Origin: Balneolaceae bacterium
GTDB taxonomy: Bacteria > Bacteroidota > Rhodothermia > Balneolales > Balneolaceae
Reading direction: 5' to 3'
DNA length: 54,037 nucleotides
Assembly: GCA_020832285.1 (NCBI GenBank)
Contig: JAFIFB010000042.1
Span: 1-54,037, forward strand
Notes under the pieces: generated by a model
The model's input: the letters and a program-made list of their open reading frames with translations, nothing else
Database searches by the model: none
What the model was told of the DNA's origin: nothing
Position numbers and translations under genes: made by a program
Shown: piece after piece, positions 50-15,215 of the stretch
Position numbering within the stretch: position 1 is the stretch's first letter
Layout: every line of letters begins with the position of its first letter

Positions 50-60
50 TCATTTTTAAA

Positions 61-110
61 TGGAACTTATTCTGTAGCCACTACAGCAATATTTTTCGGA
101 ACTTGAGTTA
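61..110. repeat. Dispersed ~50-bp intergenic repeat, copy A
   Basis: About 50 bp that matches 43320-43371 at roughly 40 of 49 aligned positions by eye. Each copy lies directly beyond the stop codon of a minus-strand gene. Both contain a small hairpin: TGTAG-cca-CTACA here and TGTAG-cct-TTACA in the other copy, where one pair becomes a G-T wobble. It could be a mobile repeat or a shared 3'-end RNA element. No function is known to me. Confidence 0.6.
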
Positions 111-119
111 AACCTTTAA

Positions 120-3100
120 TCAATCATCCACCAACGGGGTATTTAATTTGGTAATCGTTGTGGCAATAGAATTACCGTCAGTAACAGTAAGCAATAATTT
201 AAAGTACTCATAGTTTTTTGGGACTCTTAATCTTAAAACAGGGCCGTTATGAATATCTTTTATAGCGAGGTGATTGCCATGTTCATCCTGTTTTACCAGT
301 GACCATTCAAAAGAGTAATTTTTAGTGTCCTGACCACCTATCCAGCCATTTTCGTCTTTATAAAGCATTGAATAGTAATGCAACACTTCATTTTCATATA
401 CAGGTATTGCCGGCTTTAATATTCTGACAGTTTTATTCTCATTAACTGTTTCTGTTTCATTCAGAACATGTTTTAGTTGGGAGTATTCATTTTTGGAACG
501 TCCCTTTCGGTCAATGATGCCATCAAAGGTGAGTTTATTGCTCTCGTGCTGGTCTTGCCAGGATGTTACAAAAAACAAAGGATCTGAGTTCCATGTTTCA
601 GGATGAAAAAGATTATCAGTTTCTATTTCGCTGAATAAATATTGCTTTTCGGTGCCTTCAAAATAGTCTGTTACTGAGCGTAAGTGTTCATCATTTTTTA
701 CAGCTAAACCAAAATAACCGATCCCACTCACATTATCAGCCAGCAACTGGGCATGATATACAGAGAGCAGGTTTACTTCAAGGTCAATTATTATTGGTCT
801 GACTGGATCAATCTCTTTAATTTCAGAAACCAGTTTTTCCAGCCAGTTTATATAGGCACGATTCTGGTACAGTAATTCCGGTTTATGGAAAAAATCTTTC
901 TGATTATAAAGGACATCATTCTGAATATTCCACGAGGAAATATGGGCGTTATTTTTATGCTGTTCAATCTCGTGAATAATAGTTTCGTGTAACTGATTTG
1001 CTCTCAGGGGGTTATTCATAAAGTCAATGGATTCCGAAACCCAAAAACCAAACGAAACATCAAGCTCCAATTCTCTTGAGATATTCAGGATATTATACAC
1101 ATAAACCGAATTTCCTGTGATTTTAATGGAATTAAATCCAAGGTTTTTAATTCGTTTAAAATCCGACTGCAGTTTTCTCCTGTTCAAAACATGGTAATTT
1201 TTCCGCCACTCATTACCATATTTCAGGTTAATACCTTTTGTTTCTTCCAGGCTTAATTCTGATGCCGGATTTACTAATGACTCATGGGCATCATTTTTAA
1301 GAACAGGTAAAGGTGTAAATACATAACCCGGGACTTTCTTGCTTTTAAATGAATTTTTGAAAGCCTGATTTTGGGGAATTGTCCAGTCAAGATACCCGTC
1401 GGGTTCCAATCCTTCGGGCCAATTTTTATCAACACTGCTATTAAAGTAGACTACGGACTTTATTTCTGAATAATCATTTTCAATTACAGCGAATGCATCT
1501 TCAATCCATTGATTTTGATTTTGGCCATCACGTAATGTTCCAAATTCAGCTATCACTACAGGTGTGAGTGGTAATTTATTTAGCTCTTGATGAAAAGGTT
1601 CGTACAGGCTTTCAAAATCATGCCATTCGCCATCTGTACTAAACTCTCCATAATCCAGAATATTAATTCCAACCCAGTCAACATATTCTCTGCCGGGATA
1701 TGAATCCGCTATGTTTTCCGGCTTCCATGGGTTCCATATCCATATTACGTTGTGAGCATTTCTGTTTTTAAAGATTTCATAGGTATGAATCCATGCGCTT
1801 TTAAATTTAGATGAAGCCTGATCACCCGACATATACCATGGATAAAACGGATTGTCAAATTCATGCGCAAACCTCAAAAATATTGGCTTATCGAGCACTT
1901 TGAGTTTGTCAGCAAATTCCGAAATGAAGGAATCGAAAAAGCCACTTGTTATGAGATCATAAACATGATCCTCGTCGCTTATTTCATCCTCAAACGTGTT
2001 AAGCCACGGCTCCCATGTTATCATTGGGATAGACTGATTCAAATATACAGAATCAATCAGCGCGTCGGGAAAACTTGATTCTATATCCTTATTCCACGCT
2101 AAGTAATGAGAAATAATGTCGAAATTCTCTTCGATCTGGTCAGATATATTTCTAACAATATCCAGGCTGGTAATTCCATCGTCATATCTGGGAGCAAAAA
2201 TTCCAATGTAGTTGATGACATTTTTCTCCTGCACTTCGGGTTGAACGCCTCCCCATTTTACATATTCAGTATGATAATAGAATCCGCCTGAAACTGCTGC
2301 AATCAATACTACCAAAGGAAGAGCTCCTTTTTGCCAGGCAGTAAAGAACAGAAATTTTCCGGAATTAAAGAGTGATTTTTTTTGCCCATTAAACTCAAAG
2401 GTAGCTTTTACAGGCTTGGGTTTTTCATAGGCAAACACCAATGTGAAAAACATAAAAGATGCATTAATCAGCGCAAAACCCGACATAAAAACTGAAAAAG
2501 GGGTAAAATCGATACTCAGGCCATAGATTACGGCAATAATCGAAATCACTCCAACAGCAAGGTTTGGCATCACTATTTTCCAACTGGTACGTTCATTGTC
2601 TTCTTTTGGAGTAGGCAAATAAGGTACTTTTTTACGAATAATTGTGTAAACAAGGCCTATAATATTAACCCACCACGTACATGTCTGCAGCAATCCGCCC
2701 AGGAAATGAGTCCCCCACTCACTTTTATCCATTACCCAACGCTGCACAAACAGCCTTATGCCCAGAATTGAAGCTAAAACGGGTGCAACAATGAAACCAA
2801 AGTTAATGATATTCCCTTTCCATGGTGTAGCAGCTGCAAATAATGATATTATCGGGATTAAGAAACATATCAGAACTACTAAACCGGAGAGGTAATGAAG
2901 GGGTAAGATTCCGAAATGAATTTTTTGCCGCCAGGTAAATTTTTTATACAGTTTTGGGAAAACAGAGACCAACAATTCCAGAGTCCCTCGCGACCATTTT
3001 AACTGCTGTTTGTAGAATGAGGTAAGTGAGCCGGGGACAAGTCCCTTTGTGAAGATTTTTGGAACATAAACCGATTTCCATCCTTTTGCGTAAAGTTGCA

Positions 3101-3896
3101 TTGCTGTATGCATATCTTCCGATAAACCCGCAGAATGTCCTCCAATTGAATCAAGTGCTTTGCGTCTGAAAACACAATTTGCCCCTATGGCATTTACCGT
3201 TCCGTAGGTGTTCATGGTCATCATCACCGGGCCATAAAATTGGAACGTTTGTTCGGCAGCTGCTTTAGCAACCAGTGATTCATCAACATTGTAATAAGCC
3301 TGAACAGACTGGACAAATCCGATGTTTTCATCTTCAAAATAGGGGATAACCTCATCCAGGAAATCCTCTTTAGGTACATGGTCAGGATCCAGTATCAGGC
3401 AGATGTCTCCGGTTGCCTGTTTGAGCGCATTGTTGATATTTCCCGCCTTGGCATTGATGCGATTGTCTCTTGTTACATGAATGATATCGTGTTTTTTGCA
3501 AAAATCTTTTAAATGTGCGTCATTTGCTTCATCACACAGATAGGTTGTATGTGGATATTTGATCCTTTTAATGGCAAGAAGAGTGTTTTCCACCATGTCA
3601 TATGGTTCACCGGGGAAATACGTCGTCAAGACATCAGCCGATAGCTTTTTTGTAAGCAGCGGTTTTTCAGGAACAGAAATATCCCAATAGTGATACCAAA
3701 TATAAATAACTCTGAAACTGTCAAAAGAGAAAAGGACAATCAATAGCCAGAATAGCAATTTATGGTCAATGAATTCCGGTGAAAGAAACCAATAGAAGAA
3801 ATTGACAATACTCAAGAGCCCGAGGAGTATTAAAATTCTCAGTGTTAACTTCTCTTTTATCGTCGGTTCTTTAATAACTGTGTTATTTTTGCTCAC
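120..3896 (-). CDS. Cellulose-synthase-like GT2 glycosyltransferase fused to GH26-like and TIM-barrel glycosidase-like domains
   Basis: 1258 residues. Two membrane helices (about 20-70) precede a cytoplasmic family-2 glycosyltransferase domain (about 85-310) with D122, DPD at 170-172, ED at 260-261 and QQLKW at 297-301, the Q-x-x-R-W position with Lys in place of Arg. Further membrane helices follow to about 541. The rest should be outside the cytoplasm: a GH26-like domain (about 560-860) with HE at 678-679 as likely acid/base and E784 in IAEFGT as likely nucleophile, then a second barrel-like region from about 885 to 1170 that looks degenerate, then a beta-rich end. The start is GTG and overlaps the upstream stop by 4 bases (GTGA), so the two genes are translationally coupled. 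Likely role: makes and trims or remodels a beta-linked surface polysaccharide. GT2 and GH26 are read from motifs; the fused function is inferred. Confidence 0.85.
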   Translation of the reverse strand: MSKNNTVIKEPTIKEKLTLRILILLGLLSIVNFFYWFLSPEFIDHKLLFWLLIVLFSFDSFRVIYIWYHYWDISVPEKPLLTKKLSADVLTTYFPGEPYDMVENTLLAIKRIKYPHTTYLCDEANDAHLKDFCKKHDIIHVTRDNRINAKAGNINNALKQATGDICLILDPDHVPKEDFLDEVIPYFEDENIGFVQSVQAYYNVDESLVAKAAAEQTFQFYGPVMMTMNTYGTVNAIGANCVFRRKALDSIGGHSAGLSEDMHTAMQLYAKGWKSVYVPKIFTKGLVPGSLTSFYKQQLKWSRGTLELLVSVFPKLYKKFTWRQKIHFGILPLHYLSGLVVLICFLIPIISLFAAATPWKGNIINFGFIVAPVLASILGIRLFVQRWVMDKSEWGTHFLGGLLQTCTWWVNIIGLVYTIIRKKVPYLPTPKEDNERTSWKIVMPNLAVGVISIIAVIYGLSIDFTPFSVFMSGFALINASFMFFTLVFAYEKPKPVKATFEFNGQKKSLFNSGKFLFFTAWQKGALPLVVLIAAVSGGFYYHTEYVKWGGVQPEVQEKNVINYIGIFAPRYDDGITSLDIVRNISDQIEENFDIISHYLAWNKDIESSFPDALIDSVYLNQSIPMITWEPWLNTFEDEISDEDHVYDLITSGFFDSFISEFADKLKVLDKPIFLRFAHEFDNPFYPWYMSGDQASSKFKSAWIHTYEIFKNRNAHNVIWIWNPWKPENIADSYPGREYVDWVGINILDYGEFSTDGEWHDFESLYEPFHQELNKLPLTPVVIAEFGTLRDGQNQNQWIEDAFAVIENDYSEIKSVVYFNSSVDKNWPEGLEPDGYLDWTIPQNQAFKNSFKSKKVPGYVFTPLPVLKNDAHESLVNPASELSLEETKGINLKYGNEWRKNYHVLNRRKLQSDFKRIKNLGFNSIKITGNSVYVYNILNISRELELDVSFGFWVSESIDFMNNPLRANQLHETIIHEIEQHKNNAHISSWNIQNDVLYNQKDFFHKPELLYQNRAYINWLEKLVSEIKEIDPVRPIIIDLEVNLLSVYHAQLLADNVSGIGYFGLAVKNDEHLRSVTDYFEGTEKQYLFSEIETDNLFHPETWNSDPLFFVTSWQDQHESNKLTFDGIIDRKGRSKNEYSQLKHVLNETETVNENKTVRILKPAIPVYENEVLHYYSMLYKDENGWIGGQDTKNYSFEWSLVKQDEHGNHLAIKDIHNGPVLRLRVPKNYEYFKLLLTVTDGNSIATTITKLNTPLVDD

Positions 3897-5221
3897 TGAT
3901 TATTTAGAACATAAAATGGAGTGTTGGTAGTGGCAAAGGTGCCATCATCATTGTATATGTACGCGAATATTCTGTAAGGACCTTGTTTTATTGGGGCAAG
4001 AAAGGTTGTTTCGTTTTTTTTAAAGCTGATAAAGGTGTTAATTGGCTTATAATTCTTCACTACTATATCACTTGTATCGTCATACCAGGCTTCATGATAA
4101 ATTTCCCAATCAATACGCAGACTATCATTATAGTTTTCATGAAAAACTATTTCTGCATGGCTTAATTCACCTGGTGAAAAGATGATATTATCATGTGCCC
4201 CTTTATGATTTACCAACATGTAATTCATTCTGCTTAATTGAGGAGAGATGTCCGATTGATTCCAAAGGGCTTCAATAACATTAATACTTTCTGATTTTTC
4301 CCCATCCCTGAAAAGACTGAACCAGGTGTGTGTACGCTCAAGTTTTGTTCCCCAGTAAAAAACCAAAAATCCAAGACTTGCTGAATCTTCATTACCCTCA
4401 ATCATATTACTTCTTGCTCTGTAAAGTTCAGCTTTTATGGAACTTGTAGACTCTATGGGTGCGCCCCAGGAAGTACTACTTGATTCCCAGGGACCGTCCG
4501 GGCCAAGTTCACTAAGTAAATATGGTTTGGTTCCGAATAAAAACGAAACCTGAGCTAAATTTCTATTGACCAGTCTCGTATTACCGAAAGTATTAAATGA
4601 GATAATATCCAGTTCCGGAGAATGAATGAAAATGCTACTCATCGTCTTTCGCCCGGCCCCAATAATTGAAGTTGAAACAGGATGATTTGGATCAACCTCC
4701 TGAATGATGGATACCAGCTCATTGAATGTTTTTATAAAATCATTCTGTCTAAAAACAAGAGGATAATTAAGCTCATTACCCAGGTTCCATATAAGGAGTG
4801 CCGGATGATCTTTATGTTGATATACCAGGTCCCTTACTTTTTGTTTTAGAAGCATATTTTCATCTTCGTCTTCGTATAAATTGTATGAAGTACTATAGGA
4901 TGGTATATAGATATCAACTACTACTGCTAAACCGTGTCTGTGCGCTTCATCCAGTTTATCTTTCAAATCTGAGCTATTGAACACCCTGATTGTGTTGCCT
5001 CCAATTTCTGCCAACTCTTTAAAATGAGAATCTCCTCCAGCCCCCTGAATATGAAAAGGCTCACCATTTCTTATAAGCTGAAATCCTGATTCTGTTTTTT
5101 CCACATAAACCGTTCTGTTTACATTGACAGGTTTTTCTTTGTGGAGATTTCGTAAAACAGACAATCCCGTCAAAGCGATGATAATAATTAGCACCTGGAC
5201 TGTATAAATAAATAGTTTCAC
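3893..5221 (-). CDS. Membrane-anchored glycoside hydrolase (GH2/GH5-like TIM barrel)
   Basis: 442 residues. An N-terminal hydrophobic stretch (about 4-24) is a signal anchor, so the enzyme should sit in the periplasm or at the outer face of the inner membrane. The barrel carries WNLGNE with E150 as likely acid/base and LLSELG with E238 as likely nucleophile, the spacing and local sequence of clan GH-A enzymes, mostly GH2 barrel-like. The substrate-entry motif before it (GGNTIRVFN) is also typical. A beta-rich C-terminal domain (about 340-442) may bind sugar. It is coupled to the downstream GT2 fusion by a GTGA overlap, so it probably acts on the same polymer. The substrate is unknown. Confidence 0.8.
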   Translation of the reverse strand: MKLFIYTVQVLIIIIALTGLSVLRNLHKEKPVNVNRTVYVEKTESGFQLIRNGEPFHIQGAGGDSHFKELAEIGGNTIRVFNSSDLKDKLDEAHRHGLAVVVDIYIPSYSTSYNLYEDEDENMLLKQKVRDLVYQHKDHPALLIWNLGNELNYPLVFRQNDFIKTFNELVSIIQEVDPNHPVSTSIIGAGRKTMSSIFIHSPELDIISFNTFGNTRLVNRNLAQVSFLFGTKPYLLSELGPDGPWESSSTSWGAPIESTSSIKAELYRARSNMIEGNEDSASLGFLVFYWGTKLERTHTWFSLFRDGEKSESINVIEALWNQSDISPQLSRMNYMLVNHKGAHDNIIFSPGELSHAEIVFHENYNDSLRIDWEIYHEAWYDDTSDIVVKNYKPINTFISFKKNETTFLAPIKQGPYRIFAYIYNDDGTFATTNTPFYVLNNQ

Positions 5222-5340
5222 CTTCCCTCATTTACTGATTTTTAGATTGTCGGATAAAGCTTTTTTTTTAGAAAACATGATCATCACAAATAATTAACCG
5301 TGAAACTCAACTGGCGCACATACATTTAAATGCTGAAAAA

Positions 5341-6519
5341 TTACTTAAATATTGATTTCTGTTTGCCGGCTTTGATTGAATATGTATCCATTATTTCTGG
5401 TACTTTTAAATCATTCAAACAATCAGCCATTATTTCCAATTGGTATCGATTGATATGGTGATGAATGGGCAGTTCGAGTAATCGCTTCTCCAGTTGTTCT
5501 GTTCCTGGAAATCCATCCAAACCAAAAGGTGCCTCAGTCCAGCCGATATAGCAGGTAATTCCTTTATTCAGTAATTCTCGCTGAATGAAGTTTCTGGAAC
5601 ATGGTGGGGTTAAAATTGGCAAACTGAAAGGCACATATCCTTCTTTTAATTGGTATTGTTGTTGACTTGAGATATCTCCTGATTGTGAATTTTGTGCCTC
5701 TGTATCGTGAATGGATAATCGATCGAACCCGATTGGAGAAAATGCTTCCAGGTCATGAATATGATTCCACAAGTAGCCAACATTTTCTCTACGCTTTCTG
5801 GATATTTTTTCCACATTTACATTTGGGTAGTATCCCTCCAATAACCGGTCCATTCTTTTTACCGTTACTGTTTGCACTTCATCATAATCGATATAACCGA
5901 TTTCCGGAATTCTCATTTTTTGAAATACATTCTTGCCACCGGAAAAGTGGTTTAAATAATATTTAACCCTTGATCCCAGCATGTGATAACCGGTGAATAA
6001 ACTGTTTACTTTTTTTGTTTTGGACGGCTGGAACGGCCAGGGCATTTTATTCAGAATCAAAAAACCGCCACAATGAAACTGAAGCATTTTCCGTGTGCTG
6101 AAAATGGTGAAGTCGCCGGTTGTTCCCAGTATCTTGCCGTTTAAATGACTATTCATCGTATGAGAGCAGTCTTCCATTAAAAAAACATCCAACTCCTGTG
6201 TCAGTTTTTTCAGTGGTGCCATATCTACAGGTATCCCGAAAAAATGGACCGCAAACACCATTTGGGTCTGATCATCAATCAGTCCCCGGATCTCATCAAC
6301 AGAGAAATCGAGTTGTGTGGATACGTCATAAAACCTTGTTTCATAACCTGCTGCCATAACAAACCGATAGAGCTTGCCCGGAATATATGACGGCATAATA
6401 ATATTCGGTTTCGGTTTTGGCCGATTGGCCTGAATCCATTTCATAACATCATAAAAAGCGTGCCCCGCATTTCCATAATTGATCGGTTTTGTTTTGAAAT
6501 TTTTTAAAAACTGTTTCAT
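5341..6519 (-). CDS. DegT/DnrJ/EryC1/StrS-type PLP-dependent aminotransferase-like protein
   Basis: 392 residues, the usual length of the DegT family. MEDCSH places D117 against the PLP ring nitrogen, and FSTRKMLQFHCGG gives the Schiff-base lysine at K144 followed by the family's GG. Family members transaminate keto-sugars on nucleotides, but this one is divergent: the start lacks the usual PxxxP substrate segment and the middle (about 170-290) is little conserved. It sits 28 bp downstream of a BioF2-like acyltransferase in the same run of genes, which fits making an amino group for later acylation. Substrate not determinable; a non-sugar substrate is possible. Confidence 0.75.
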   Translation of the reverse strand: MKQFLKNFKTKPINYGNAGHAFYDVMKWIQANRPKPKPNIIMPSYIPGKLYRFVMAAGYETRFYDVSTQLDFSVDEIRGLIDDQTQMVFAVHFFGIPVDMAPLKKLTQELDVFLMEDCSHTMNSHLNGKILGTTGDFTIFSTRKMLQFHCGGFLILNKMPWPFQPSKTKKVNSLFTGYHMLGSRVKYYLNHFSGGKNVFQKMRIPEIGYIDYDEVQTVTVKRMDRLLEGYYPNVNVEKISRKRRENVGYLWNHIHDLEAFSPIGFDRLSIHDTEAQNSQSGDISSQQQYQLKEGYVPFSLPILTPPCSRNFIQRELLNKGITCYIGWTEAPFGLDGFPGTEQLEKRLLELPIHHHINRYQLEIMADCLNDLKVPEIMDTYSIKAGKQKSIFK

Positions 6520-6547
6520 TGTCTCTCTCTTTATTTGCGTTTATTGA

Positions 6548-7828
6548 TTAAGAATTTAAAACTAACTTTAGTTTATTGGCCATACGTGAAAAAAGGAATC
6601 GGGTATAATGATTCCACCCAGCAATGAATGAGTGGTTTTTTGTGATGAAATCTTTTCTTATGACCTCATTAGCATATCTTTTTTTCAGGTATTGTGTTAT
6701 ATCAACAATCTTGCTTAACAGAACCTGACGAAGAGTTCCCGTCGAAATATCAATGGTTTTATTTTGATTGATATTGTTAGCCAACCGCTGCTTGTATTCC
6801 TCGTTTCCTCGCAGAAAATCGAATGTTAAACTCGATTGAACTGCTTCCTTTATTATGGTTGTATTCAAAACCTTTCCGGGGCCAATATCTACAAGAGGAG
6901 AGGAGATATCCATAGCTCCGTGTTGTAAGTACATTTGGTTTTTATAAATGATTACTATGGCCATAGCAACAAAGTTTTCTAATTTGGTCTCTTCTGCCGG
7001 AATAAGTGCATAAACCCGGATGGATTCTTTTTTCTGCAATTTTCTGCAGGTTTCCAGGAAGAAGTTTTTCATGCTTTTTTGTGAAAATGTACCCGGAAAT
7101 CCTTCTCTGTTCCATTGATCCTGATGTAAATCAATCAACTGATTTAAATAAAGTTCAAAATCTTCACTGTTATCGAGAATGAGTGTGCGAAAAACATTGT
7201 CTTCATTCTTATTCGTTTTTCTAAGGCTTTTCCGAACATTTTTTCTCTCATTACCCGAAAGATTATTTAAGTATCCTGCCCATCCATTTTCTTGAGGATT
7301 AATACGTGTAGTTTTTGATGCATTTTCAACATGTACCTTGAAACCAGAAGAAGAAAAATCATTTTCCAATAATCCCAGAGTAGAACTGTGTTCTGGTATT
7401 TCTTCAAGAATCATCGCATCAAAAAGAATTTCATTGTTTATGAATACCATCAAATGTTCATAAAATGAGGCTGTATACTTATCCAGAATTATAAATTGCA
7501 GGTAATCTGAGTATGCATTCACACCCAATAATGGGCCATCATTCGTCTTTCCAATTCTTGACCCAATCAAACGAAGACAGGTATAGTAAGTGAATCCAAA
7601 CAGCGAATATCTATCGAAAAAAAGAGGGGCTATACCTACTACTTTATCTTCATCATAAAGAACAAATATTTGCAATTTTCCTAAATCACCGAAATATTTC
7701 CACCAAGTTCGGTTCCAATCAAACGTTTGAAAAACATGAGAATCTGTTTTTCTGCTTAACAGATTCCACTCTGTTTCCAGGTTGTCAAACTCTGTGTTCG
7801 AACTGATAACTGTATGTCTGATATTCAT
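6548..7828 (-). CDS. BioF2-like/CelD-type GNAT acyltransferase
   Basis: 426 residues. The N-terminal half has the look of the Acetyltransf_6 (BioF2-like, CelD/BcsL) family. The C-terminal half has the family's hallmark FDFLRGNEEYKQRLA just after a segment that predicts the acceptor fold. Members are common in exopolysaccharide and cellulose clusters and in lipid-modifying loci, and are distant relatives of FemAB aminoacyl transferases. It is 56 bp from the upstream GNAT-like gene and 28 bp from the DegT-like gene. I infer that it moves an acyl or aminoacyl group onto the polymer or its precursor, perhaps from the carrier protein at 9038-9307. Confidence 0.75.
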   Translation of the reverse strand: MNIRHTVISSNTEFDNLETEWNLLSRKTDSHVFQTFDWNRTWWKYFGDLGKLQIFVLYDEDKVVGIAPLFFDRYSLFGFTYYTCLRLIGSRIGKTNDGPLLGVNAYSDYLQFIILDKYTASFYEHLMVFINNEILFDAMILEEIPEHSSTLGLLENDFSSSGFKVHVENASKTTRINPQENGWAGYLNNLSGNERKNVRKSLRKTNKNEDNVFRTLILDNSEDFELYLNQLIDLHQDQWNREGFPGTFSQKSMKNFFLETCRKLQKKESIRVYALIPAEETKLENFVAMAIVIIYKNQMYLQHGAMDISSPLVDIGPGKVLNTTIIKEAVQSSLTFDFLRGNEEYKQRLANNINQNKTIDISTGTLRQVLLSKIVDITQYLKKRYANEVIRKDFITKNHSFIAGWNHYTRFLFSRMANKLKLVLNS

Positions 7829-7884
7829 GGTTCCACTCTTCTTTACTGCTCATGATGAATTTTCTTACGCGTAGTTTCGTATTC

Positions 7885-9045
7885 TCAGATGAGCCAAAGA
7901 TCACCCTCAAGTCTTGTAAAAAAGGCATTGCCAGTTTGTATATCTAACATCAAATCAGTATCCCTGCTATGAAATAATGTCCACATTCTTGCCGGCATAC
8001 AAATTGCTTTTGTAGTAAATGGTGTCTGAAACTGGCTGGCCATAAGGCGCCCGGAAAGTTCTATGCCTCCCTGCATGTAAGCATGCCATGTTAGTGAATC
8101 AAATAATACCGTTTCCATTCCCGGAACGGATACCGCCTGGATAACTTCACAAACTCCGCCAGGCAATGAATAGTAGATAAACCAACCGGCTACTCCACCT
8201 TTCCCATCCAAAATTGCAAACTTGTGCAGTGTTCCATATCTCTTCTCCCTGCTTAATAAATTAAAAAGATGTTCAATTTTTGACAGGTCATAATCAGGAA
8301 ATAAAAAATATCTGTTACTGATTTTATCTAATGCCATTAACAACATCTGTGAATGTAAAGGTGTTAATTCTACATCCAATCTTTTTCGATAAAACATTGG
8401 CAGGCGTATTTTACCTGCTACAGTATCTGTTCCTTTTGCAAATAGTGCGGTAATATTTTGAACAGGTTTATAAAAACTTTTGAGGAACGGGCGCAGTGCA
8501 AAAGAGAGTGGCTTTAAAGGAACTTTATAGAAAATACATTCACCAACTGCAGGTTCACCACCAAGCCTTTTCCACAGCATACGTGTTGATTCAGAAGAGT
8601 TATCAGCAAATGAGAGATCCTGCGGTCCCGAAAGAAATTTCTGAAGCATTTTCATAGGCACAAGTTTTGCACGAGCTTGCTCTGTGGCCATTAAATGATG
8701 GCAGTTGGCCACTTTAATAGTTTTCTCTTTATAGCGAAAAGAATTTGTGATCACTCCTAAAAATCCATTTATAGTTCCATCCATTGACCTGTTTACAAGT
8801 GAAGTGGAATTAGAGTTGAGTTCCCCATCTGAAAAATAGAGCAGTTCAATGGTCTTTTTCAGGTTATTCAATGAAATCTCTTTACTCCCCGGAAAATAGA
8901 TTTGTGAAAGCAGTGCTACCTCTTCTATGTCACTAAAGGATAGAAGTGCAATCGAATCGAAACTGTTCTTTTTAGTATGATTGTTAGATTGTTTCAGAAC
9001 CTGTAATGTCAAATCCTGCTTTCTTATGTCATTGCGTTTATCCAT
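7885..9045 (-). CDS. GNAT-like N-acyltransferase of unknown substrate
   Basis: 386 residues. An N-terminal GNAT-like half includes an acyl-donor-like region near MDGTINGFLGVI and a region resembling the second half of the GNAT fold (LSFADNSSESTRMLWKRLGGEP). A second domain begins after about residue 230. Its start overlaps the acyl carrier protein stop by 8 bases, which argues for coupled synthesis and a shared job. It is probably a transferase that accepts a carrier-bound acyl or aminoacyl group. No single catalytic motif is decisive, so the GNAT assignment is moderate. Confidence 0.6.
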   Translation of the reverse strand: MDKRNDIRKQDLTLQVLKQSNNHTKKNSFDSIALLSFSDIEEVALLSQIYFPGSKEISLNNLKKTIELLYFSDGELNSNSTSLVNRSMDGTINGFLGVITNSFRYKEKTIKVANCHHLMATEQARAKLVPMKMLQKFLSGPQDLSFADNSSESTRMLWKRLGGEPAVGECIFYKVPLKPLSFALRPFLKSFYKPVQNITALFAKGTDTVAGKIRLPMFYRKRLDVELTPLHSQMLLMALDKISNRYFLFPDYDLSKIEHLFNLLSREKRYGTLHKFAILDGKGGVAGWFIYYSLPGGVCEVIQAVSVPGMETVLFDSLTWHAYMQGGIELSGRLMASQFQTPFTTKAICMPARMWTLFHSRDTDLMLDIQTGNAFFTRLEGDLWLI

Positions 9046-9307
9046 AATTTTTTAGTGATGTAGAAGGGGTTAGGCGGGTAATCATCTTAGACATTGTTCT
9101 TACTGTTCGGTAATCGTCAACATCTAACTCTTCAGGTGGAATTGTGATTTCAAAACCCTCTTCCAGTTCCATCATCAGCTGTATGAGAGACAATGAATCA
9201 AGTAACCCCGATTCAAACAGGTCTTTATCGATGTCTACCTGTCCAATAGTTAGTGCCTTACATACAATGGTTGAAATTTTTTCTGATATATTATTATCGG
9301 TATTCAT
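9038..9307 (-). CDS. Free-standing acyl/peptidyl carrier protein
   Basis: 89 residues with the carrier-protein fold signature GLLDSLS. S38 is the 4'-phosphopantetheine attachment site. The acidic helix after it (ELEEGFEITIPPEEL) is typical of ACP and DltC-like carriers. It lies 34 bp after the adenylation gene and overlaps the next gene, as expected for a loading pair acting in trans. A holo-ACP synthase is not seen in the window, so the modifying enzyme must be encoded elsewhere. Confidence 0.9.
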   Translation of the reverse strand: MNTDNNISEKISTIVCKALTIGQVDIDKDLFESGLLDSLSLIQLMMELEEGFEITIPPEELDVDDYRTVRTMSKMITRLTPSTSLKNYG

Positions 9308-9341
9308 ATTGAGTTCTGATCTTGTTTAGCCAACTATGTAT

Positions 9342-10928
9342 TTAGTTTTCAAATTCATCCGCTAATTTTTTTCGGTCAATTTTACCATTTCCATTTCGTG
9401 GTAACTGCTCATATTCTTGCCAGAAATGGGGAATCATATAGGCCGGAATTTTGTCCAGCAGTTTCTTTTTTAAATCAGGGGCAATATCACCGTTTTTTAC
9501 TCCGCTCCCTACAAAAGCACAACCGATCGCAGTGCCTTCAAAACCATTTTTTTTAACCGGAACCACAGCATACTCTCTTAAGATCTCATTCTGCCCTAAT
9601 GCCGCTTCAATTTCTCCAAGCTCTATCCGGTATCCTCTGCTTTTAATCTGATAATCTGACCGGCCGTGAAAGTAAACGAAGCCATCTTCTCCAACTGAGG
9701 CGAGGTCACCGGTTTTATAAATTCTTTCTTCATTTCCATTCTCATCCGTGTGTTGAATAAAGGCTGCATCTGTTTTCGCCTTATCGTTCCAATATCCGGG
9801 GCTCAATCCCACACCTGATATGTATAAATCTCCGACTTTGCCCTGTTTAACTGTACTCAAATCATCGTTTAAAACAAGCAGTTTTTCACCATCGCAGGCT
9901 GTTCCAATAGGAATTTCAGAGTTATCTTCCGGTATTTGAGGAACTGTAAAATAACTGCTGGCAATCGTAGCTTCAGTGGGTCCGTATAAATTGGTAAATT
10001 GTATATCAGGTAAGTTTTTCATCCAATATTGCAGTGCCGGCAGGGGAAATACCTCACCACACCAAATCAATCGCTTTAAACTTGGAAAACCTCCGTCCGG
10101 AATTGCTTTAAACCTTGCAAGATAATTCAATGCAGATGGGACCGAGAACCATTGATGCAGATTATTATCCAGAATAAAATTTGTCAATTTTTTAGGGTTC
10201 ACACTAATTTCTGGCGGTACCAGGAAGAGGCGTGAACCAGAGGCGAATGCTCCGAAAATATCAAATGTTGACAGGTCGAAATGAAGCGGAGAGTGGCATG
10301 AGATCCGTTCCCCGGCTCTCATTTTGAAAAAGGAAACGGCCCAGTTAACGAAGGTTTGAATATTTTTATGGGTAATCACCACTCCTTTCGGCTCCCCGGT
10401 AGACCCTGATGTAAACAATATTTGAGCAGCCGTATTTTCATCCCGAACAACCCCATGGGGAGTATTCCGTTGTAATTTAATATCATCATAACAAAATGCC
10501 GGTGGGTAATCATCAGCATACATCATCGGTTGCTTCGACCACCATATCCATGGAATATGACTCAGTTTAGAATCAATATGAAATAGGTCCTGGAATTGAT
10601 GGATAGAGTGGCTGTCAACAAATAACAAGGCCGGATCGGATGATTTTATAATTTTTGCAACCCGCTCTGCCGGACTTTTAAAATCCAGAGGCACATACAC
10701 TCCTCCTGCCTTACTAATCCCTAATATTGCGATAATCGTTTTTGGCGTTTTTTCCATAAATAACCCAACACGATTTCCCGGCTTGAGGCCGGCTTGTATT
10801 AACTGACCCGCCAACTGGTTACTTTCCAGTTCGAGGTTCAAATAATTGATGTGTTCGTCACCCAGGGTAATTGCAATCCGTGTACCGTATTTTTTTACTT
10901 TTTCTCTGGACCAATCGTAAATCATCAT
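9342..10928 (-). CDS. Amino-acid adenylation enzyme (AMP-binding, DltA/NRPS A-domain-like)
   Basis: 528 residues, a complete stand-alone A domain. Core motifs: LFTSGSTGEPKG (A3, about 171-182), HFDLSTFDIFG (A4, about 216-226), NLYGPTEAT (A5), YKTGDLA (A7), GRSDYQIKSRGYRIELGEIE (A8) and NGKIDRKKL with K516 (A10). The Asp in FDLS (D218) matches the residue that contacts the alpha-amino group in NRPS A domains and DltA, so an amino acid substrate is likelier than a fatty acid. It should charge the carrier protein encoded 34 bp downstream. Its start overlaps the luciferase-like gene (ATGA). The amino acid chosen cannot be read with confidence. Confidence 0.88.
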   Translation of the reverse strand: MMIYDWSREKVKKYGTRIAITLGDEHINYLNLELESNQLAGQLIQAGLKPGNRVGLFMEKTPKTIIAILGISKAGGVYVPLDFKSPAERVAKIIKSSDPALLFVDSHSIHQFQDLFHIDSKLSHIPWIWWSKQPMMYADDYPPAFCYDDIKLQRNTPHGVVRDENTAAQILFTSGSTGEPKGVVITHKNIQTFVNWAVSFFKMRAGERISCHSPLHFDLSTFDIFGAFASGSRLFLVPPEISVNPKKLTNFILDNNLHQWFSVPSALNYLARFKAIPDGGFPSLKRLIWCGEVFPLPALQYWMKNLPDIQFTNLYGPTEATIASSYFTVPQIPEDNSEIPIGTACDGEKLLVLNDDLSTVKQGKVGDLYISGVGLSPGYWNDKAKTDAAFIQHTDENGNEERIYKTGDLASVGEDGFVYFHGRSDYQIKSRGYRIELGEIEAALGQNEILREYAVVPVKKNGFEGTAIGCAFVGSGVKNGDIAPDLKKKLLDKIPAYMIPHFWQEYEQLPRNGNGKIDRKKLADEFEN

Positions 10929-11950
10929 AACTGTTCTTGTTTTTCTAAATGGTTTTGAGCTCGATTAAATACCATCATCGTGCTATGTAGTTCTATTTCT
11001 GAAACCGGTGTGTCAATGATGCAGGTTTTGCAGCCGGCATCCAGATACTTCGAAATTGCATTTGCTACTTCATCGTAACTTCCAACGAGGTATGGACAAA
11101 AAGTATGGTAATGCTCGAAAGGACCCAGCCAATACACAGGTTCAGAATTATGTTGTTTGCCATTTCCATTTTGATTGGAAAGCTTTTTGTGCCACTCCGA
11201 ATCGGATGTTTTTTTGGCAAGCTGATGAGATATTTCTCCCATCCGTGTAGCCGGAAAGCGTTCATGTGCTTCTTTCCATGCTTCATCATGATTGTGCCTG
11301 GCCAATACTCCTATACGAATTCCCTCAACCAATGCAGCTCCAATCGTACCATTTTTTGCTAATTCTTCAATCGGTTCGGGATATTGAATTAATTGTACTC
11401 CAAGGCGTTCCGATGCTTCCTTTGCCGCGTCAGAGGAGCCCGATAAATAATAGTCAGGTAAAAGATCTTCGGGCATATCCGGCTTCAGTTTCAGGTTTTT
11501 TATCTGATAAAATTCTCCTTCATATGTAACACCCTCGGATGAGGTTAACAGCTTTTGAATAATTTCTGTGTATTCTACAAGCCTGTCGTATCGCCTGTCA
11601 TGATCAACAGGTCCTCCAAGCGCCTTTAGATCATTTATATAACCACCAGCAACCAGGTTCAGGGCTATTTTCCGGTTATGAATAAACGCAATACTTGAAA
11701 TTTTTTTGGCAACCGTATACGGGTGCATATAAACGGGCTGGAGTGCCACCATAGGTATTAAATGAGTAGTCTCATTCAGAATTAAATCGGTAACTGACCA
11801 GGGGTCGGCCAGGCGGTTGTCGCTGTAGATGAGAGTTCCCCTGTATCCATATTTTTCACTTTGTACTGCAATTCTCTTTAACTCCCTTATGAACTGCACT
11901 CTGTCACTTTTAATAGATTCCGGCATTGTTGTGAATAGCTCTGTTTCCAT
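10925..11950 (-). CDS. LLM-class flavin-dependent monooxygenase (natural-product type)
   Basis: 341 residues, a bacterial luciferase-like TIM barrel. The stretches QPVYMHPYTVAKKISS, NLVAGGY and HDRRYDRLVEYTEII match the subfamily found in natural product clusters beside adenylation and carrier domains, as I recall it. The enzyme would use FMNH2 and O2 to oxidise a substrate, here probably the carrier-bound amino acid. It is first in the minus-strand run and overlaps the adenylation gene by 4 bases. The window shows no dedicated flavin reductase. Confidence 0.85.
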   Translation of the reverse strand: METELFTTMPESIKSDRVQFIRELKRIAVQSEKYGYRGTLIYSDNRLADPWSVTDLILNETTHLIPMVALQPVYMHPYTVAKKISSIAFIHNRKIALNLVAGGYINDLKALGGPVDHDRRYDRLVEYTEIIQKLLTSSEGVTYEGEFYQIKNLKLKPDMPEDLLPDYYLSGSSDAAKEASERLGVQLIQYPEPIEELAKNGTIGAALVEGIRIGVLARHNHDEAWKEAHERFPATRMGEISHQLAKKTSDSEWHKKLSNQNGNGKQHNSEPVYWLGPFEHYHTFCPYLVGSYDEVANAISKYLDAGCKTCIIDTPVSEIELHSTMMVFNRAQNHLEKQEQL

Positions 11951-12316
11951 AACAAAAAAGGTTTGAATGATCTTGAATTTTTCCGGGAAACTTCAGGATT
12001 AAGACTCATATTTGCCCGGACCGCACAAACAGTTATTTCTTGATTTACCTTTACTCTACTGCCTGCGAATACATACCCATATACAATTGTTGTGCCAAAG
12101 AGATAATTATCTGCTTTCTATTTTAAATACAACCTGATAACTGTTTTTAGACAGCTTTTTTATTAATCAAAGCACATCAAAAGAACATTTTTACACACCT
12201 CTCTTGTGATATTTAGTATAAAATGTTCACTTTATTTTGAAGTACTTTACACATTGAGAGTAAACAGATAAGCCATCAAACCGTATGATGACCTGAGAAT
12301 TCAATCCATTAACTGA
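11951..12316. promoter_or_regulatory. Divergent promoter region, AT-rich, 366 bp
   Basis: Separates the minus-strand run that starts at 11950 from the formyltransferase at 12317. It must hold the promoters of both. AT-rich blocks are present, but I see no promoter boxes, operator or hairpin strong enough to name. Confidence 0.5.
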
Positions 12317-13234
12317 ATGAATATTTTATTAGCAGCTGAAGAGTCTGCCGGTGTGCAAACCCTGAAATCTTTATCAAAGAGCAGCCATAACCTTAAAGCT
12401 GTTCTTACCAATACCGCCTCACCGGAAAAAGGTGCACCTGTTGCTGCACTTTCAAAAAAACTTGGCTACACAATCATGCCGGCGACACTGGTCAAAGAGT
12501 CCGGCTTTGCAGGTTGGATTGCCGAAAATGATATAGATCTTCTGTTAAACATACACTCACTTTTTGTAATCTGTACGGAAGTTATTGAATCATTAAAGAT
12601 GGGAGCTTACAATCTGCATCCCGGCCCATTGCCCAGTTATACCGGGCTCAATGCACCAAGCTGGGCCGTGTACAATCAGGAGCCTCAGCATGGAGTTACA
12701 CTGCACAAAATTGTTGATAAAATAGATGCCGGGACTATTATTGATGAGGCTCTTTTTCCCATCACTTCAACAGATACCGGGCTGTCCGTTAGCATGAAGT
12801 GTGTGAAGCATGGAATACCATTGATTGAAAAATTCCTGGATAAAATCGAAAAAGGCGAATCAATAGCCGGGAAAGAACAAGATTTTTCCCGGCGCAAATA
12901 TTACCGGGCAAATCAAATTCCGCATAATGGAAAAATTGATTGGAATAGTTCAGCCTCCCGGATTGATGCCTTTGTGAGAGCCTGTAACTACGCGCCGTTT
13001 CAATCGCCTTGGGGATACCCCTATACTTTACTGGATGGAGAAAAAATATCGATTCTAAAAATTGGAATTACAGATCAACTCTGCAACAGACATCCCGGTA
13101 CAGTTGGAGAAACGATTGATGGCGCTGCATCCATTGCTACTGCAGATAATTGGGTTACCGCAAATCGGTGTATGGTTAATGGAGTTCACGTTGATGCATG
13201 CTCAAAACTCTCCCCCGGTGATCTTTTAACTTGA
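12317..13234 (+). CDS. Formyltransferase (ArnA/Fmt-like)
   Basis: 305 residues. The N-terminal formyl-transfer domain has the catalytic trio N99 and H101 in NLHPGPLPSYTG and D137 in KIDAG, matching Asn-His-Asp of Fmt and ArnA. The C-terminal domain (about 200-305) begins with KIDWN and looks like the Fmt C-terminal fold. Such enzymes move a formyl group from 10-formyl-tetrahydrofolate to an amino group: initiator tRNA, UDP-4-amino sugar, or a carrier-bound amino acid. It lies divergent to the adenylation cluster, so a glycan or amino-acid target is more likely than tRNA. The ATG at 12317 is the natural start. Confidence 0.85.
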   Translation: MNILLAAEESAGVQTLKSLSKSSHNLKAVLTNTASPEKGAPVAALSKKLGYTIMPATLVKESGFAGWIAENDIDLLLNIHSLFVICTEVIESLKMGAYNLHPGPLPSYTGLNAPSWAVYNQEPQHGVTLHKIVDKIDAGTIIDEALFPITSTDTGLSVSMKCVKHGIPLIEKFLDKIEKGESIAGKEQDFSRRKYYRANQIPHNGKIDWNSSASRIDAFVRACNYAPFQSPWGYPYTLLDGEKISILKIGITDQLCNRHPGTVGETIDGAASIATADNWVTANRCMVNGVHVDACSKLSPGDLLT

Positions 13235-13649
13235 GTTAACCTCGTCAGATTGAGCGCTTGCCCACGTAGCTTCAGCGAAGGTGGTGGAGTCGAAAACCAC
13301 TCTCGGTTTTGTCCTGTAAGGGATGCTCGCGACACACTTCCGGTGACAGTTAACTCTATCCACTCGGACCCATCCCCCGGCCCCTTTCCTCCGGCGAACA
13401 GCACGCCGCAAGGAAGGGGTGACGTTCTGCGAAAGGATTTTCTATAAAAAAGTCTCTACCTGTCGAGCTGCTGCTTATCCAGCGCGATAGTGAGGGATTT
13501 AGGGTGGGTCCGAAATGAATGGCCCAAATTTACTTATATCAATTTTGATCATTTATAAACCGAATAAAGGATAATTCAGAAACAGGCACCCTTTTTGCAA
13601 TGGATAGAGCCAATCATACAAATCATATTTAAAAGAGAAAGTAAAAAGG
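13235..13649. other. Intergenic stretch with a hairpin repeat
   Basis: 415 bp between the formyltransferase and the hexapeptide acetyltransferase. The first 200 bp are GC-richer than the surroundings and hold the hairpin repeat listed at 13374-13419. Short open frames here overlap the repeat on both strands and have no protein-like composition. The last 150 bp are AT-rich and probably contain the promoter of the next gene. Confidence 0.5.
13374..13419. repeat. Dispersed GGACCCA-hairpin repeat, copy 1
   Basis: Begins with GGACCCATCCCCC and folds on itself: CCCCTTTCCT (13381-13390) against AGGAAGGGG (13411-13419) with one bulge, and inside it CGGCG (13392-13396) against CGCCG (13404-13408). 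A related element starts with GGACCCACCCCC at 48234 and also folds. Both lie in intergenic DNA. Confidence 0.55.
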
Positions 13650-14237
13650 ATGACTTTTCAGAGATTAGTAGCCCGGTTAAAAAAATATCCGCTAAAAGAA
13701 TATATAGCTGGTTTTCTGTTTTCAGGGAAATTTGACGAGAAAGGTGTGCTGGTATATTCAGACGGCCGGCCCTATCCAAAAGTCATCCATAAAGGAGGGG
13801 CCCTGGTGGCCGGTAACTGTCAGTTATATTCGGGAGTACGGCTTGAAATTGGTGAAAATGGCCGGCTTGAAATCGGGAATGGATCTTACTTGAACAGAAA
13901 CACCCTGATTATCTGCGAAAAGAGGATTGATATTGGTAAAAACTGCAAAATTGCCTGGGATGTCGTCATCATGGATTCCGACCTGCACCCAATAAATTCA
14001 GAGCCAATTGTAAACAAACCGGTATTTATTGAGGATAATGTGTGGATTGGATGCCGTTCAATTATATTAAAAGGAGTTAGAATAGGGGAGGGCGCTGTTG
14101 TAGCCGCAGGCTCTGTAGTAACGAAAGATATTCCCCCATTTACTATTTGGGGCGGTGCACCGGCAAAGTTTATCGCCCATGTAAATGACCCCAAGAATGG
14201 TGTAGCTCCTGTACCGGTTCAGGTGATTTATCAGTAA
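13650..14237 (+). CDS. Left-handed beta-helix (hexapeptide repeat) O-acetyltransferase
   Basis: 195 residues. Repeated hexapeptide turns run from about residue 60 to 180 (LEIGENGRLEIGNG, RIDIGKNCKIAW, VFIEDNVWIGCRSIILKGV, RIGEGAVVAAGSVV). DSDLHPI supplies the probable catalytic His. The end, GGAPAKFI, is typical of maltose/galactoside/colanic-acid-type acetyltransferases. It would work as a trimer with acetyl-CoA on a sugar or glycan intermediate. A terminator follows it. Confidence 0.85.
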   Translation: MTFQRLVARLKKYPLKEYIAGFLFSGKFDEKGVLVYSDGRPYPKVIHKGGALVAGNCQLYSGVRLEIGENGRLEIGNGSYLNRNTLIICEKRIDIGKNCKIAWDVVIMDSDLHPINSEPIVNKPVFIEDNVWIGCRSIILKGVRIGEGAVVAAGSVVTKDIPPFTIWGGAPAKFIAHVNDPKNGVAPVPVQVIYQ

Positions 14238-14284
14238 CAGAATTACTCTTAATCCCGTGTAAAAAAGTTACTCTCAAATAGAAT

Positions 14285-14327
14285 AAAAGCTTCTAATGCC
14301 AATCTAATCATCATCTGAGAAGCTTTT
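14285..14327 (+). terminator. Rho-independent-like terminator
   Basis: Perfect 10-bp stem AAAAGCTTCT (14285-14294) and AGAAGCTTTT (14318-14327), 23-nt loop, followed by a T-rich run. It lies 48 bp after the acetyltransferase stop. Confidence 0.75.
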
Positions 14328-14420
14328 TCTTTGTTGGCATATAAATTGCTTTTAACCTGTTAAGAGTTTTCAAAAAAATCGCTTGATATCGGTTTTTCAA
14401 ATTTACATTAAGAGGTTTTC

Positions 14421-15215
14421 ATGCTTGCCATCGAAAAAAATAACGGATACCAGGTACTTGGAGTTAATATTTCAACATATTCAAAAGAAGAATTTTTTTT
14501 TCTGATTCAGGAGAGGTTAAAAGATAATGATGAAAATTCACCCCCGGTTTTTATTGTAACCGTTAATCCCGAAATTGCTATTCAATCGATTATCGATAAC
14601 GATTTTAAAGATGTTTTAAATACCTCAACGATAAACACCGCTGATGGTGTGGGTATCAGCTGGGCTATAAATTTTCTTTACAACAAAAAGGTAGATCGAA
14701 TTACGGGATCTGATTCCTTAGAGAAAATTTGCACCTATTGTGCAGAACTTAATAAGCCCGCATTCTTTTATGGCGCTGCTCCCGGAATAGCACAAAAAGC
14801 GGCAGATATACTCACGGAAAGAATAGAAAACTTAAAAATTACGGGTGTTTATTCACCGGATAAACCTGATATTCCAATGGGAAATCTGCCTTTTGATACA
14901 CAAGCCTCTCTGCAAAGTGCTTCTGTCGTATTTGTTGCCCTTGGCGCTCCCTCACAGGAGAAGTGGATCCATGAAAACCTCGAAAAACTTCCAAACTGTA
15001 AATTAATTATTGGCATTGGAGGCAGCTTTGATTTCATCACCGGAAACACAAAACGAGCACCAATGCTTTTTCGAAAAACCGGATTCGAATGGATGTACCG
15101 CCTCTACCTGGAACCTTCGCGATGGAGGCGAATGCTTAGGCTTCCTCTCTTTGCACTGAATGTAATGCTCTTAAAAACAAGCAGCCTCGACATTCAAAAG
15201 CCTGCAGATCATTAA
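14421..15215 (+). CDS. WecG/TagA/CpsF-family glycosyltransferase (GT26)
   Basis: 264 residues. TINTADGVGI, DRITGSD, FYGAAPG and ALGAPSQEKWI are the family's conserved blocks. Members add the second sugar (ManNAc, ManNAcA or glucose) to an undecaprenyl-linked first sugar, so this points to a lipid-linked glycan route, distinct in principle from the processive GT2 synthase. The protein is peripheral to the membrane through basic and hydrophobic residues near its end (about 215-255). No partner initiating transferase is in the window. Confidence 0.88.
   Translation: MLAIEKNNGYQVLGVNISTYSKEEFFFLIQERLKDNDENSPPVFIVTVNPEIAIQSIIDNDFKDVLNTSTINTADGVGISWAINFLYNKKVDRITGSDSLEKICTYCAELNKPAFFYGAAPGIAQKAADILTERIENLKITGVYSPDKPDIPMGNLPFDTQASLQSASVVFVALGAPSQEKWIHENLEKLPNCKLIIGIGGSFDFITGNTKRAPMLFRKTGFEWMYRLYLEPSRWRRMLRLPLFALNVMLLKTSSLDIQKPADH

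What the first reader, a model, noticed from the sequence alone, without database searches (positions are those of the whole stretch)
120..15215. Glycan synthase locus combined with a free-standing amino-acid loading and oxidation module
Eight minus-strand genes, most overlapping or closely spaced, join two kinds of machinery rarely seen together: a processive GT2-type synthase and an anchored glycosidase on one side, and on the other an adenylation enzyme, a lone carrier protein, an LLM monooxygenase and GNAT/BioF2-like transferases. A formyltransferase, an acetyltransferase and a GT26 enzyme are encoded divergently next door. One reading is a polymer decorated with an oxidised, perhaps formylated, amino acid delivered from the carrier protein. 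The gene identities are from motifs; the joint pathway is inference.
Basis: partly seen in the sequence, partly recalled or inferred. Interest (0 to 1): 0.72.

Follow-up and report, generated by a model that had tools for sequence, protein, structure and literature searches.

The report
Amino-acid decoration module beside exopolysaccharide genes
A bacterium of the order Balneolales carries a small set of genes that probably load an amino acid onto a carrier protein, oxidise it and attach it to a slime polysaccharide, which may show where such sugar coats get unusual decorations; a neighbouring glucan-making gene pair is probably a separate unit.

Summary
The eight minus-strand and three divergent genes are real; the genome is of the order Balneolales. 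Two units have been read as one pathway. (1) LLM monooxygenase, DltA-like adenylation enzyme, DltC-like carrier and tandem-GNAT transferase (orf386), often with divergent formyltransferase, acetyltransferase and GT26, recur whole or in part in 16 of 128 genomes of the order. In 11 of 15 relatives examined they lie beside the EpsU-type gene of an exopolysaccharide operon (Wzx also on the fetched stretches in 6); here that operon is on another contig. (2) A GT2-GH26 fusion with a GH158-like glycosidase (beta-glucan-type) occurs in 8 of 128 genomes, next to unit 1 only here and in one close relative. So the joint synthase pathway is not supported; amino-acid decoration of a glycan from a carrier protein is plausible. 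The LLM's closest plasmid relatives lie beside adenylation/NRPS genes; it is not SsuD. The second GNAT is FemX-like; the genome has no MBOAT (DltB). Likely mechanism: a small amino acid is loaded, oxidised on the carrier and transferred in the cytosol by a GNAT to an amine of the repeat unit, which Wzx then flips. Substrate, oxidation and acceptor are inferred.

The parts
10925..11950 (-). LLM-class flavin monooxygenase, closest to enzymes encoded beside adenylation/carrier genes
   Evidence: PF00296; neighbourhoods of the closest plasmid relatives; TxCPYLVG stretch, SsuD active-site residues replaced
9342..10928 (-). Free-standing amino-acid adenylation enzyme, DltA-like, pocket code DLFSICLIAK
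   Evidence: TIGR01733 365 bits, above its cut-off; DltA models 331 and 313 bits, below their cut-offs; code against S. aureus DltA
9038..9307 (-). Lone carrier protein, DltC-like, phosphopantetheine serine 38
   Evidence: PF00550; best NCBIfam model DltC, below cut-off; D37-S38 in 13 of 13 aligned
7885..9045 (-). orf386, tandem-GNAT acyltransferase with no Pfam family; candidate transferase
   Evidence: model pLDDT 84; NMT Z 20.6, 4.5 A over 300 residues; acetyltransferase 3n7z Z 20.2
6548..7828 (-). PF13480 GNAT, FemX-like; candidate amino-acid transferase
   Evidence: PF13480 1.7e-20; model pLDDT 69, residues 173-355 best on FemX 6snr Z 14.6, 2.4 A over 146 residues
5341..6519 (-). DegT/StrS-type PLP aminotransferase, linked to the module in 3 of 15 relatives
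   Evidence: PF01041; orthologues in G008, G081, G011
3893..5221 (-). Membrane-anchored GH158-like glycosidase; partner of the GT2-GH26 gene, separate unit
   Evidence: 9oro GH158 E 5.6e-54; N-terminal hydrophobic segment; beside GT2-GH26 wherever the contig reaches that far
120..3896 (-). Processive GT2 synthase fused to a GH26 domain and a C-terminal part weakly like the GH158-like partner; separate unit
   Evidence: cellulose-synthase-like GT2 and GH26 closest to Endoglucanase H; C-terminal similarity 27-29%; 8 of 128 genomes
12317..13234 (+). ArnA-like N-formyltransferase, divergent
   Evidence: PF00551; best solved relatives ArnA and a GDP-4-amino-4,6-dideoxymannose formyltransferase; 10 of 15 relatives
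13650..14237 (+). Hexapeptide (LbH) acetyltransferase
   Evidence: PF00132, solved relatives; 10 of 15 relatives
14421..15215 (+). GT26 WecG/TagA-type glycosyltransferase
   Evidence: PF03808 6.3e-49; 10 of 15 relatives

Best explanation
The conserved system is an aminoacyl-carrier-protein module attached to a Wzx/Wzy exopolysaccharide locus. Step 1: the DltA-like ligase adenylates a small amino acid and loads it on the lone carrier protein. The enzyme families are shown; the identity of the amino acid (alanine-like) is inferred from the pocket. Step 2: the LLM flavin monooxygenase oxidises the loaded residue on the carrier, probably at the alpha carbon or the nitrogen (inferred). Step 3: orf386 and/or the FemX-like GNAT, both apparently cytosolic, transfer the oxidised aminoacyl group to an amine of the lipid-linked repeat unit or its sugar precursor. 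That amine could be unmasked by the operon's deacetylase or made by the DegT aminotransferase; formyl and acetyl groups are added by the divergent enzymes (inferred). Step 4: Wzx flips and Wzy polymerises the decorated unit (inferred from families). The GT2-GH26/GH158 pair is a separate beta-glucan-type synthase unit that lies between the two in this genome and one close relative.
For: Module orthologues in 15 relatives: ligase 15 of 15, LLM 13 of 15 intact, carrier 13 of 15, orf386 13 of 15 (in the 2 without it the contig ends); EpsU-type GT2 gene of the EPS operon on the fetched stretches in 11 of 15, Wzx in 6 of 15. At genome level 13 of 16 module genomes hold the EpsU-type gene, against 16 of 112 without the module. 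The host's own EPS operon is on contig C79. The LLM's closest plasmid matches lie near AMP-binding or NRPS genes, each with a PPTase or carrier gene, in 5 of 5 neighbourhoods opened, and it lacks the SsuD residues. Carrier serine in 13 of 13 aligned. Pocket code resembles DltA's. GNAT folds. No MBOAT in the genome. No membrane segment in the module proteins or the deacetylase by a simple hydropathy scan. In G011 the LLM is broken, no carrier gene is found and the ligase pocket Asp is Gly: joint decay.
Against: No chemistry was tested. orf386 relatives also occur without ligase or carrier nearby: an Acidobacteria EPS locus (L060, 21 kb held) and an 8-kb contig of G124 (L046), so orf386 may use a CoA donor. 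The LLM is absent from G028 and the formyltransferase from 5 of 15 loci. The EpsU-type gene was not found in 3 of 16 module genomes (G017, G049, G057; 82-89% complete), and 16 of 29 genomes with it lack the module. A module GNAT of the FemX-like kind is present in 8 of 15. FemX and MprF use aminoacyl-tRNA (recalled); use of a carrier donor by such a fold is not shown, and many rows are plain acetyltransferases.
Confidence: 0.5

Rival explanations
1. The module makes a free small molecule (an oxidised amino-acid product or N-acyl amino acid) that merely sits next to the EPS operon, like the N-acyl amino acid synthases found beside exosortase/EPS genes.
For: The closest LLM relatives lie near halogenase, P450 or NRPS genes, as in small-molecule clusters. 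N-acyl amino acid synthase genes next to PEP-CTERM/EPS genes are described in PMC7293339 (passages read).
Against: No thioesterase or condensation domain among the window genes searched from 120 to 18581 (relatives' other genes were not searched one by one). Linkage with GT26, formyltransferase and the EPS operon is kept across families. The pocket keeps the Asp for an amino acid.
Confidence: 0.22
2. The amino acid is attached at the nucleotide-sugar stage: DegT makes a 4-amino sugar nucleotide, which is then N-aminoacylated or N-formylated before GT26 uses it.
For: DegT lies in the same run of genes here and in G008, G081, G011. The formyltransferase resembles ArnA and nucleotide-amino-sugar formyltransferases.
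Against: DegT is linked in only 3 of 15 relatives and the formyltransferase in 10 of 15.
Confidence: 0.18
3. One reading: the GT2-GH26 product is the polymer that is decorated, all eight genes being one pathway.
For: Near-contiguous eight-gene run. 6 of 8 genomes with the GT2-GH26 pair also hold the module (Fisher p 3.6e-5, uncorrected).
Against: Physical linkage in 2 of 8 only; other contigs in G011, G040, G048 and G101. Domain types point to a plain beta-glucan (activities recalled), which would offer no amine.
Confidence: 0.1

Closest known systems
Dlt system (DltA ligase, DltC carrier) of teichoic acid D-alanylation
   Same: Free-standing amino-acid ligase and lone carrier protein; similar pocket code (DLFSICLIAK against DLMSFCTVAK in S. 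aureus DltA); carrier's best model is DltC
   Different: Below NCBIfam cut-offs for DltA and DltC; no MBOAT (DltB) found in the genome; an LLM and apparently cytosolic GNATs instead
Caulobacter holdfast EPS pathway (HfsH deacetylase, FemX-like tandem GNAT HfsK)
   Same: Lipid-linked glycan that is flipped and polymerised, polysaccharide deacetylase, FemX-like GNAT that might acylate amines exposed by the deacetylase (PMC5362036, passages read)
   Different: No ligase/carrier/LLM donor module appears in the passages read; the nature of HfsK's acyl group is left open there
Exosortase A (XrtA)-type EPS loci with AMP-forming ligase
   Same: Chain-length, tyrosine-kinase, export and GT genes here match XrtA-system models, below cut-offs; such systems have an AMP-forming ligase family, TIGR03098
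   Different: Ligase scores 235.5 bits against a cut-off of 592.35; the only exosortase hit in the genome is on contig C2, not in the locus
NRPS-embedded flavin monooxygenases (myxothiazol, melithiazol, solanimycin)
   Same: Flavin oxygenase hydroxylating the alpha position of a carrier-bound glycyl residue (PMC10204066, passages read)
   Different: Here free-standing and in a glycan locus; whether those domains belong to the same LLM subfamily was not tested
Nod factor NodB/NodA with acyl carrier protein
   Same: Deacetylate an amino sugar, then N-acylate from a carrier protein (PMC5080398, passages read)
   Different: Nod uses fatty acyl groups; NodA was not compared with orf386
Alkanesulfonate monooxygenase SsuD
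   Same: Same LLM superfamily, 117 bits
   Different: Cut-off 518; SsuD active-site residues replaced

Membership tests
Dlt (D-alanylation) system | Ligase reaches the DltA model cut-off | tested here: not met
   312.5 bits against 559.85 (TIGR01734), 330.7 against 476 (NF003417)
Dlt (D-alanylation) system | Carrier reaches the DltC model cut-off | tested here: not met
   50.3 bits against 68 (NF003464), 35.5 against 52.35 (TIGR01688)
Dlt (D-alanylation) system | MBOAT acyltransferase DltB | tested here: not met
   PF03062: no match in the 99% complete genome; controls ring in B. subtilis, Bacteroides ihuae and L. lactis
Amino-acid adenylation enzymes | AA-adenyl model over cut-off and pocket Asp binding the amino group | tested here: met
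   365.1 bits against 317.4; Asp at the 235 position in 15 of 16 (numbering and role recalled)
Carrier proteins | Phosphopantetheine serine in a DS motif | tested here: met
   PF00550 over cut-off; D-S in 13 of 13 aligned, of 14 held
SsuD alkanesulfonate monooxygenase | Model cut-off and active-site residues | tested here: not met
   116.9 bits against 518.2; equivalents of Cys54, His228, Arg297 and Tyr331 replaced, Arg226 kept in the window protein (roles and numbering recalled)
FemABX-like transferases | Fold match to FemX | tested here: met
   Z 14.6, 2.4 A over 146 residues for 6snr; only the C-terminal domain fits well; model pLDDT 69
FemABX-like transferases | Aminoacyl-tRNA as donor | not testable with these tools
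   needs biochemistry
Exosortase A EPS system | Exosortase gene in the locus | tested here: not met
   one PF09721 hit in the genome, on contig C2, not on C79 or C89
Exosortase A EPS system | Ligase of the TIGR03098 family | tested here: not met
   235.5 bits against 592.35
Wzx/Wzy exopolysaccharide locus | Flippase and polymerase in the cluster | tested here: met
   orthologues on C79 of the same genome (families read on the L036 orthologues); on one stretch with module genes in L055 and G040

The most novel reading that the evidence does not exclude
A cytosolic, MBOAT-free counterpart of the Dlt pathway: an amino acid held on a carrier protein is oxidised there by an LLM enzyme and handed by a FemX-like or NMT-like tandem GNAT to an amine of a lipid-linked exopolysaccharide unit. 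FemX-fold enzymes of Wzx/Wzy loci would then have a carrier-bound donor instead of aminoacyl-tRNA, giving an exopolysaccharide with oxidised, capped amino-acid side groups.
Probability: 0.35. Interest if true: 0.78.

Novelty: new variant of a known kind. Interest (0 to 1): 0.6.

Why it matters
For HfsK, a FemX-like GNAT of the Caulobacter holdfast pathway that may acylate amines exposed by a deacetylase, the exact role and the acyl group are left open (PMC5362036, passages read). Here a locus carries such a GNAT and a deacetylase together with its own amino-acid ligase, carrier protein and oxygenase, which makes the donor question directly testable with purified proteins. If true, it would extend carrier-protein amino-acid chemistry from natural products and teichoic acids to exopolysaccharides.

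Tried and rejected
Rejected: one eight-gene pathway with the GT2 polymer as the target. Rejected: SsuD-type sulfonate use. Rejected: canonical Dlt or exosortase A membership. Promoter scan: 42 promoter-like sites in 1-16000 against 46.2 expected from shuffles, so it cannot decide between one or two transcripts at 5222-5340. LLM relatives in viral contigs: none by the pattern scan. A phylum sample of 394 genomes gave LLM orthologues (E 1e-50 or better) in 5, all in this order, own genome included. No Rfam match at gathering score in the window. Considered and left open: the formyltransferase (10 of 15 loci) and the small GNAT c18 (3 of 15) never occur in the same locus, which would fit alternative formyl or acetyl capping; but the three c18 loci are among the most diverged, and two loci (L041, L042) have neither. 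Horizontal transfer of the GT2-GH26 gene: 79% and 73% identity in G048 and G040 against 71% and 70% for one MoxR yardstick, suggestive at best. Literature: of ten searches, 41, 42 and 64 returned nothing; others gave listings, from which four papers were opened, in passages only. No paper on this locus was seen in these ten searches. Rows dropped: two weak orf386 matches (G125, a 98-residue frame; G058, five stops inside) were not fetched or counted.
Full report
The observation. The window is a whole contig (C89, 54,037 bases) of a 5.3-Mb, 99% complete genome. Contigs of its relatives agree in length with named Balneolales records (for example 50,881 bases for G045:C11 and JAIULZ010000011.1); 11 of the 12 loci found with orf386 in the named genomes carry Balneolales-type titles or the class name Rhodothermia, one is an acidobacterium. 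Neighbours overlap by 4 to 8 bases or lie 28 to 56 bases apart, with a largest gap of 119 bases at 5222-5340. The promoter scan found no more sites than shuffled sequence, so the transcript question stays open.

Two units, not one. I searched the 128 held genomes of the order with orf386 and fetched 18 stretches from 15 relatives. Two weak matches, G125 and G058, were left out. Two of the 15, G017 and G049, came from the LLM search of 58 genomes. With the window's genome this makes 16 of 128. In the 15 relatives the ligase is found in 15, the LLM in 13 (broken in G011, absent in G028), the carrier in 13, orf386 in 13 (in the other two the contig ends), the formyltransferase in 10, the acetyltransferase in 10, GT26 in 10, a module GNAT of the PF13480 kind in 8 and DegT in 3. 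The EpsU-type GT2 gene of an exopolysaccharide operon lies on the fetched stretches in 11 of 15, and Wzx in 6; the four without EpsU are contigs of 6 to 13 kb. That operon codes for a Wzy polymerase, a Wzx flippase, two GT4 enzymes, a second PF13480 GNAT, a polysaccharide deacetylase, a GH9 enzyme and the EpsU-type GT2. In L055 module genes and operon lie in one row, there without GH9. In the window's own genome the operon is at the start of contig C79, with chain-length, tyrosine-kinase, export and WecA-type genes behind it. In G008 the operon, from Wzx on, runs straight up to the GT2-GH26 pair and on to the module.

Across the order the EpsU-type gene is in 29 of 128 genomes: in 13 of the 16 with the module (not found in G017, G049 and G057, which are 82-89% complete) and in 16 of the 112 without it (Fisher p 1.2e-7, uncorrected for kinship). 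Among the 16 without the module its identity to the window genome's copy is 35-58%, except 84% in G010, which is 62% complete; among the 12 module relatives it is 65-87% in nine and 43-46% in three. So the module is an optional part of one branch of this EPS locus.

The GT2-GH26 fusion behaves differently. It occurs in 8 of 128 genomes. It has its glycosidase partner beside it wherever the contig reaches that far, and it lies next to the module only in the window and in G008. In G011, G040, G048 and G101 it is on other contigs and other genes flank the module; only in G040 are both contigs long enough (61 and 194 kb) to prove a wide separation. The partner is GH158-like (9oro, E 5.6e-54), and the GH26 domain is closest to Endoglucanase H. 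That GH158 holds beta-1,3-glucanases and that this Endoglucanase H domain is a lichenase are recalled. So the pair looks like a self-contained beta-glucan-type synthase unit. Against a complete divorce, 6 of the 8 genomes that hold it also hold the module, one of them decayed (Fisher p 3.6e-5, uncorrected).

The enzymes of the module. The ligase passes the amino-acid adenylation model (365 bits, cut-off 317). It stays below the cut-offs of the DltA models (331 and 313 bits against 476 and 560) and of the exosortase-A ligase (235 against 592). The pocket residues read DLFSICLIAK in the window; the pattern DL[FY]S[IL]C[LM]IAK holds in 14 of 16 sequences, one of which is cut before the last position. 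The exceptions are G028 (DMMSICLIAK) and the decayed G011 (GLFSICLIAK). S. aureus DltA gives DLMSFCTVAK, and three ligases from plasmids give DLFSLALVCK (two) or DLLSLALVCK; that codes of the latter kind go with proline is recalled. So the pocket is a little closer to DltA's, and a small amino acid is the best guess. The carrier's best model is DltC, below cut-off, and the DS motif with the serine is present in 13 of 13 aligned.

The LLM is not SsuD. It scores 117 bits against a cut-off of 518, and the residues equivalent to SsuD Cys54, His228, Arg297 and Tyr331 are replaced (their roles are recalled). Among 562 plasmid records with a match, the seven best listed score 237 to 289 bits and the other rows listed 113 or less. 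I opened five of the seven; the other two are further Tritonibacter mobilis records. In 5 of 5 the LLM gene is near AMP-binding or NRPS genes, with a PPTase or a carrier gene in each. All five share a TxCPYLVG stretch with the 12 proteins of the order that were aligned. This is the strongest evidence that the LLM works on carrier-bound substrates; no tree was made. For carrier-bound glycine, alpha-hydroxylation by flavin oxygenase domains is described for myxothiazol, melithiazol and solanimycin (PMC10204066, passages read).

orf386 has no Pfam family. Its model (pLDDT 84) is a tandem GNAT closest to N-myristoyltransferases (Z 20.6, 4.5 A over 300 residues) and to the acetyltransferase 3n7z (Z 20.2). 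The PF13480 GNAT gave a weaker model (pLDDT 69), whose residues 173-355 fit FemX best (Z 14.6, 2.4 A over 146 residues). FemA, aminoacyl-tRNA-dependent peptide synthases, MprF and ATE1 are among the further rows, together with many plain acetyltransferases. A shared fold shows no function. A simple hydropathy scan found no membrane segment in the module proteins or the deacetylase, so the decoration would be made inside the cell. No MBOAT protein was found in the genome, so the DltB route seems closed to it.

Joint decay. In G011 the LLM is reduced to fragments, the carrier gene is not found and the ligase pocket Asp is Gly, while orf386, the GNAT and DegT remain. This fits LLM, carrier and ligase acting together, and suggests that the GNATs may have other donors.

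Mechanism. Shown: gene content, linkage, families, carrier serine, predicted folds. Inferred: loading of a small amino acid, oxidation on the carrier, transfer by orf386 or the FemX-like GNAT to an amine unmasked by the deacetylase or made by DegT, formyl or acetyl capping, and flipping by Wzx. The order deacetylate-then-acylate from a carrier has a precedent in NodB/NodA (PMC5080398, passages read). A FemX-like GNAT and a deacetylase in one exopolysaccharide pathway have a precedent in the Caulobacter holdfast, where the acyl group is left open (PMC5362036, passages read). That Caulobacter also uses a GT26 enzyme (HfsJ) is recalled.

Verdict. The loading module is a recurrent, patchily distributed add-on of an exopolysaccharide locus in Balneolales: 16 of 128 genomes of the order, while a phylum sample of 394 genomes gave LLM orthologues in only 5, all of this order. 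It is a new variant of known kinds of machinery, with an unusual combination and a testable donor hypothesis.

Noticed in passing
window 1-35: The first bases resemble an Illumina adapter stretch (recalled), so the contig end is probably contaminated; by comparison with G008 the locus continues on contig C79 of the same genome.
   Followed up: partly
window 48687-49766: Phage-type integrase (PF00589) near the right end of the contig, followed by a 587-aa ORF (50918-52681) without a Pfam match: a possible mobile element.
   Followed up: no
window 15664-18581: Two flavin amine oxidase-type genes (DAO and Amino_oxidase) behind GT26; found there in G017 only among the 15 relatives, so not counted as part of the module.
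   Followed up: partly
L042 (G011) 3663-5647: Decayed copy of the module: LLM fragments, no carrier gene found, ligase pocket Asp changed to Gly.
   Followed up: yes
L045, L047, L048: A small GNAT (c18, PseH/SpeG-like) sits between ligase and carrier in three of the five loci that lack the formyltransferase.
   Followed up: partly
L060 10034-11257: An Acidobacteria genome has an orf386 relative (28%) between two flippase-family genes of an EPS locus, without ligase, carrier or LLM in the 21 kb held.
   Followed up: partly
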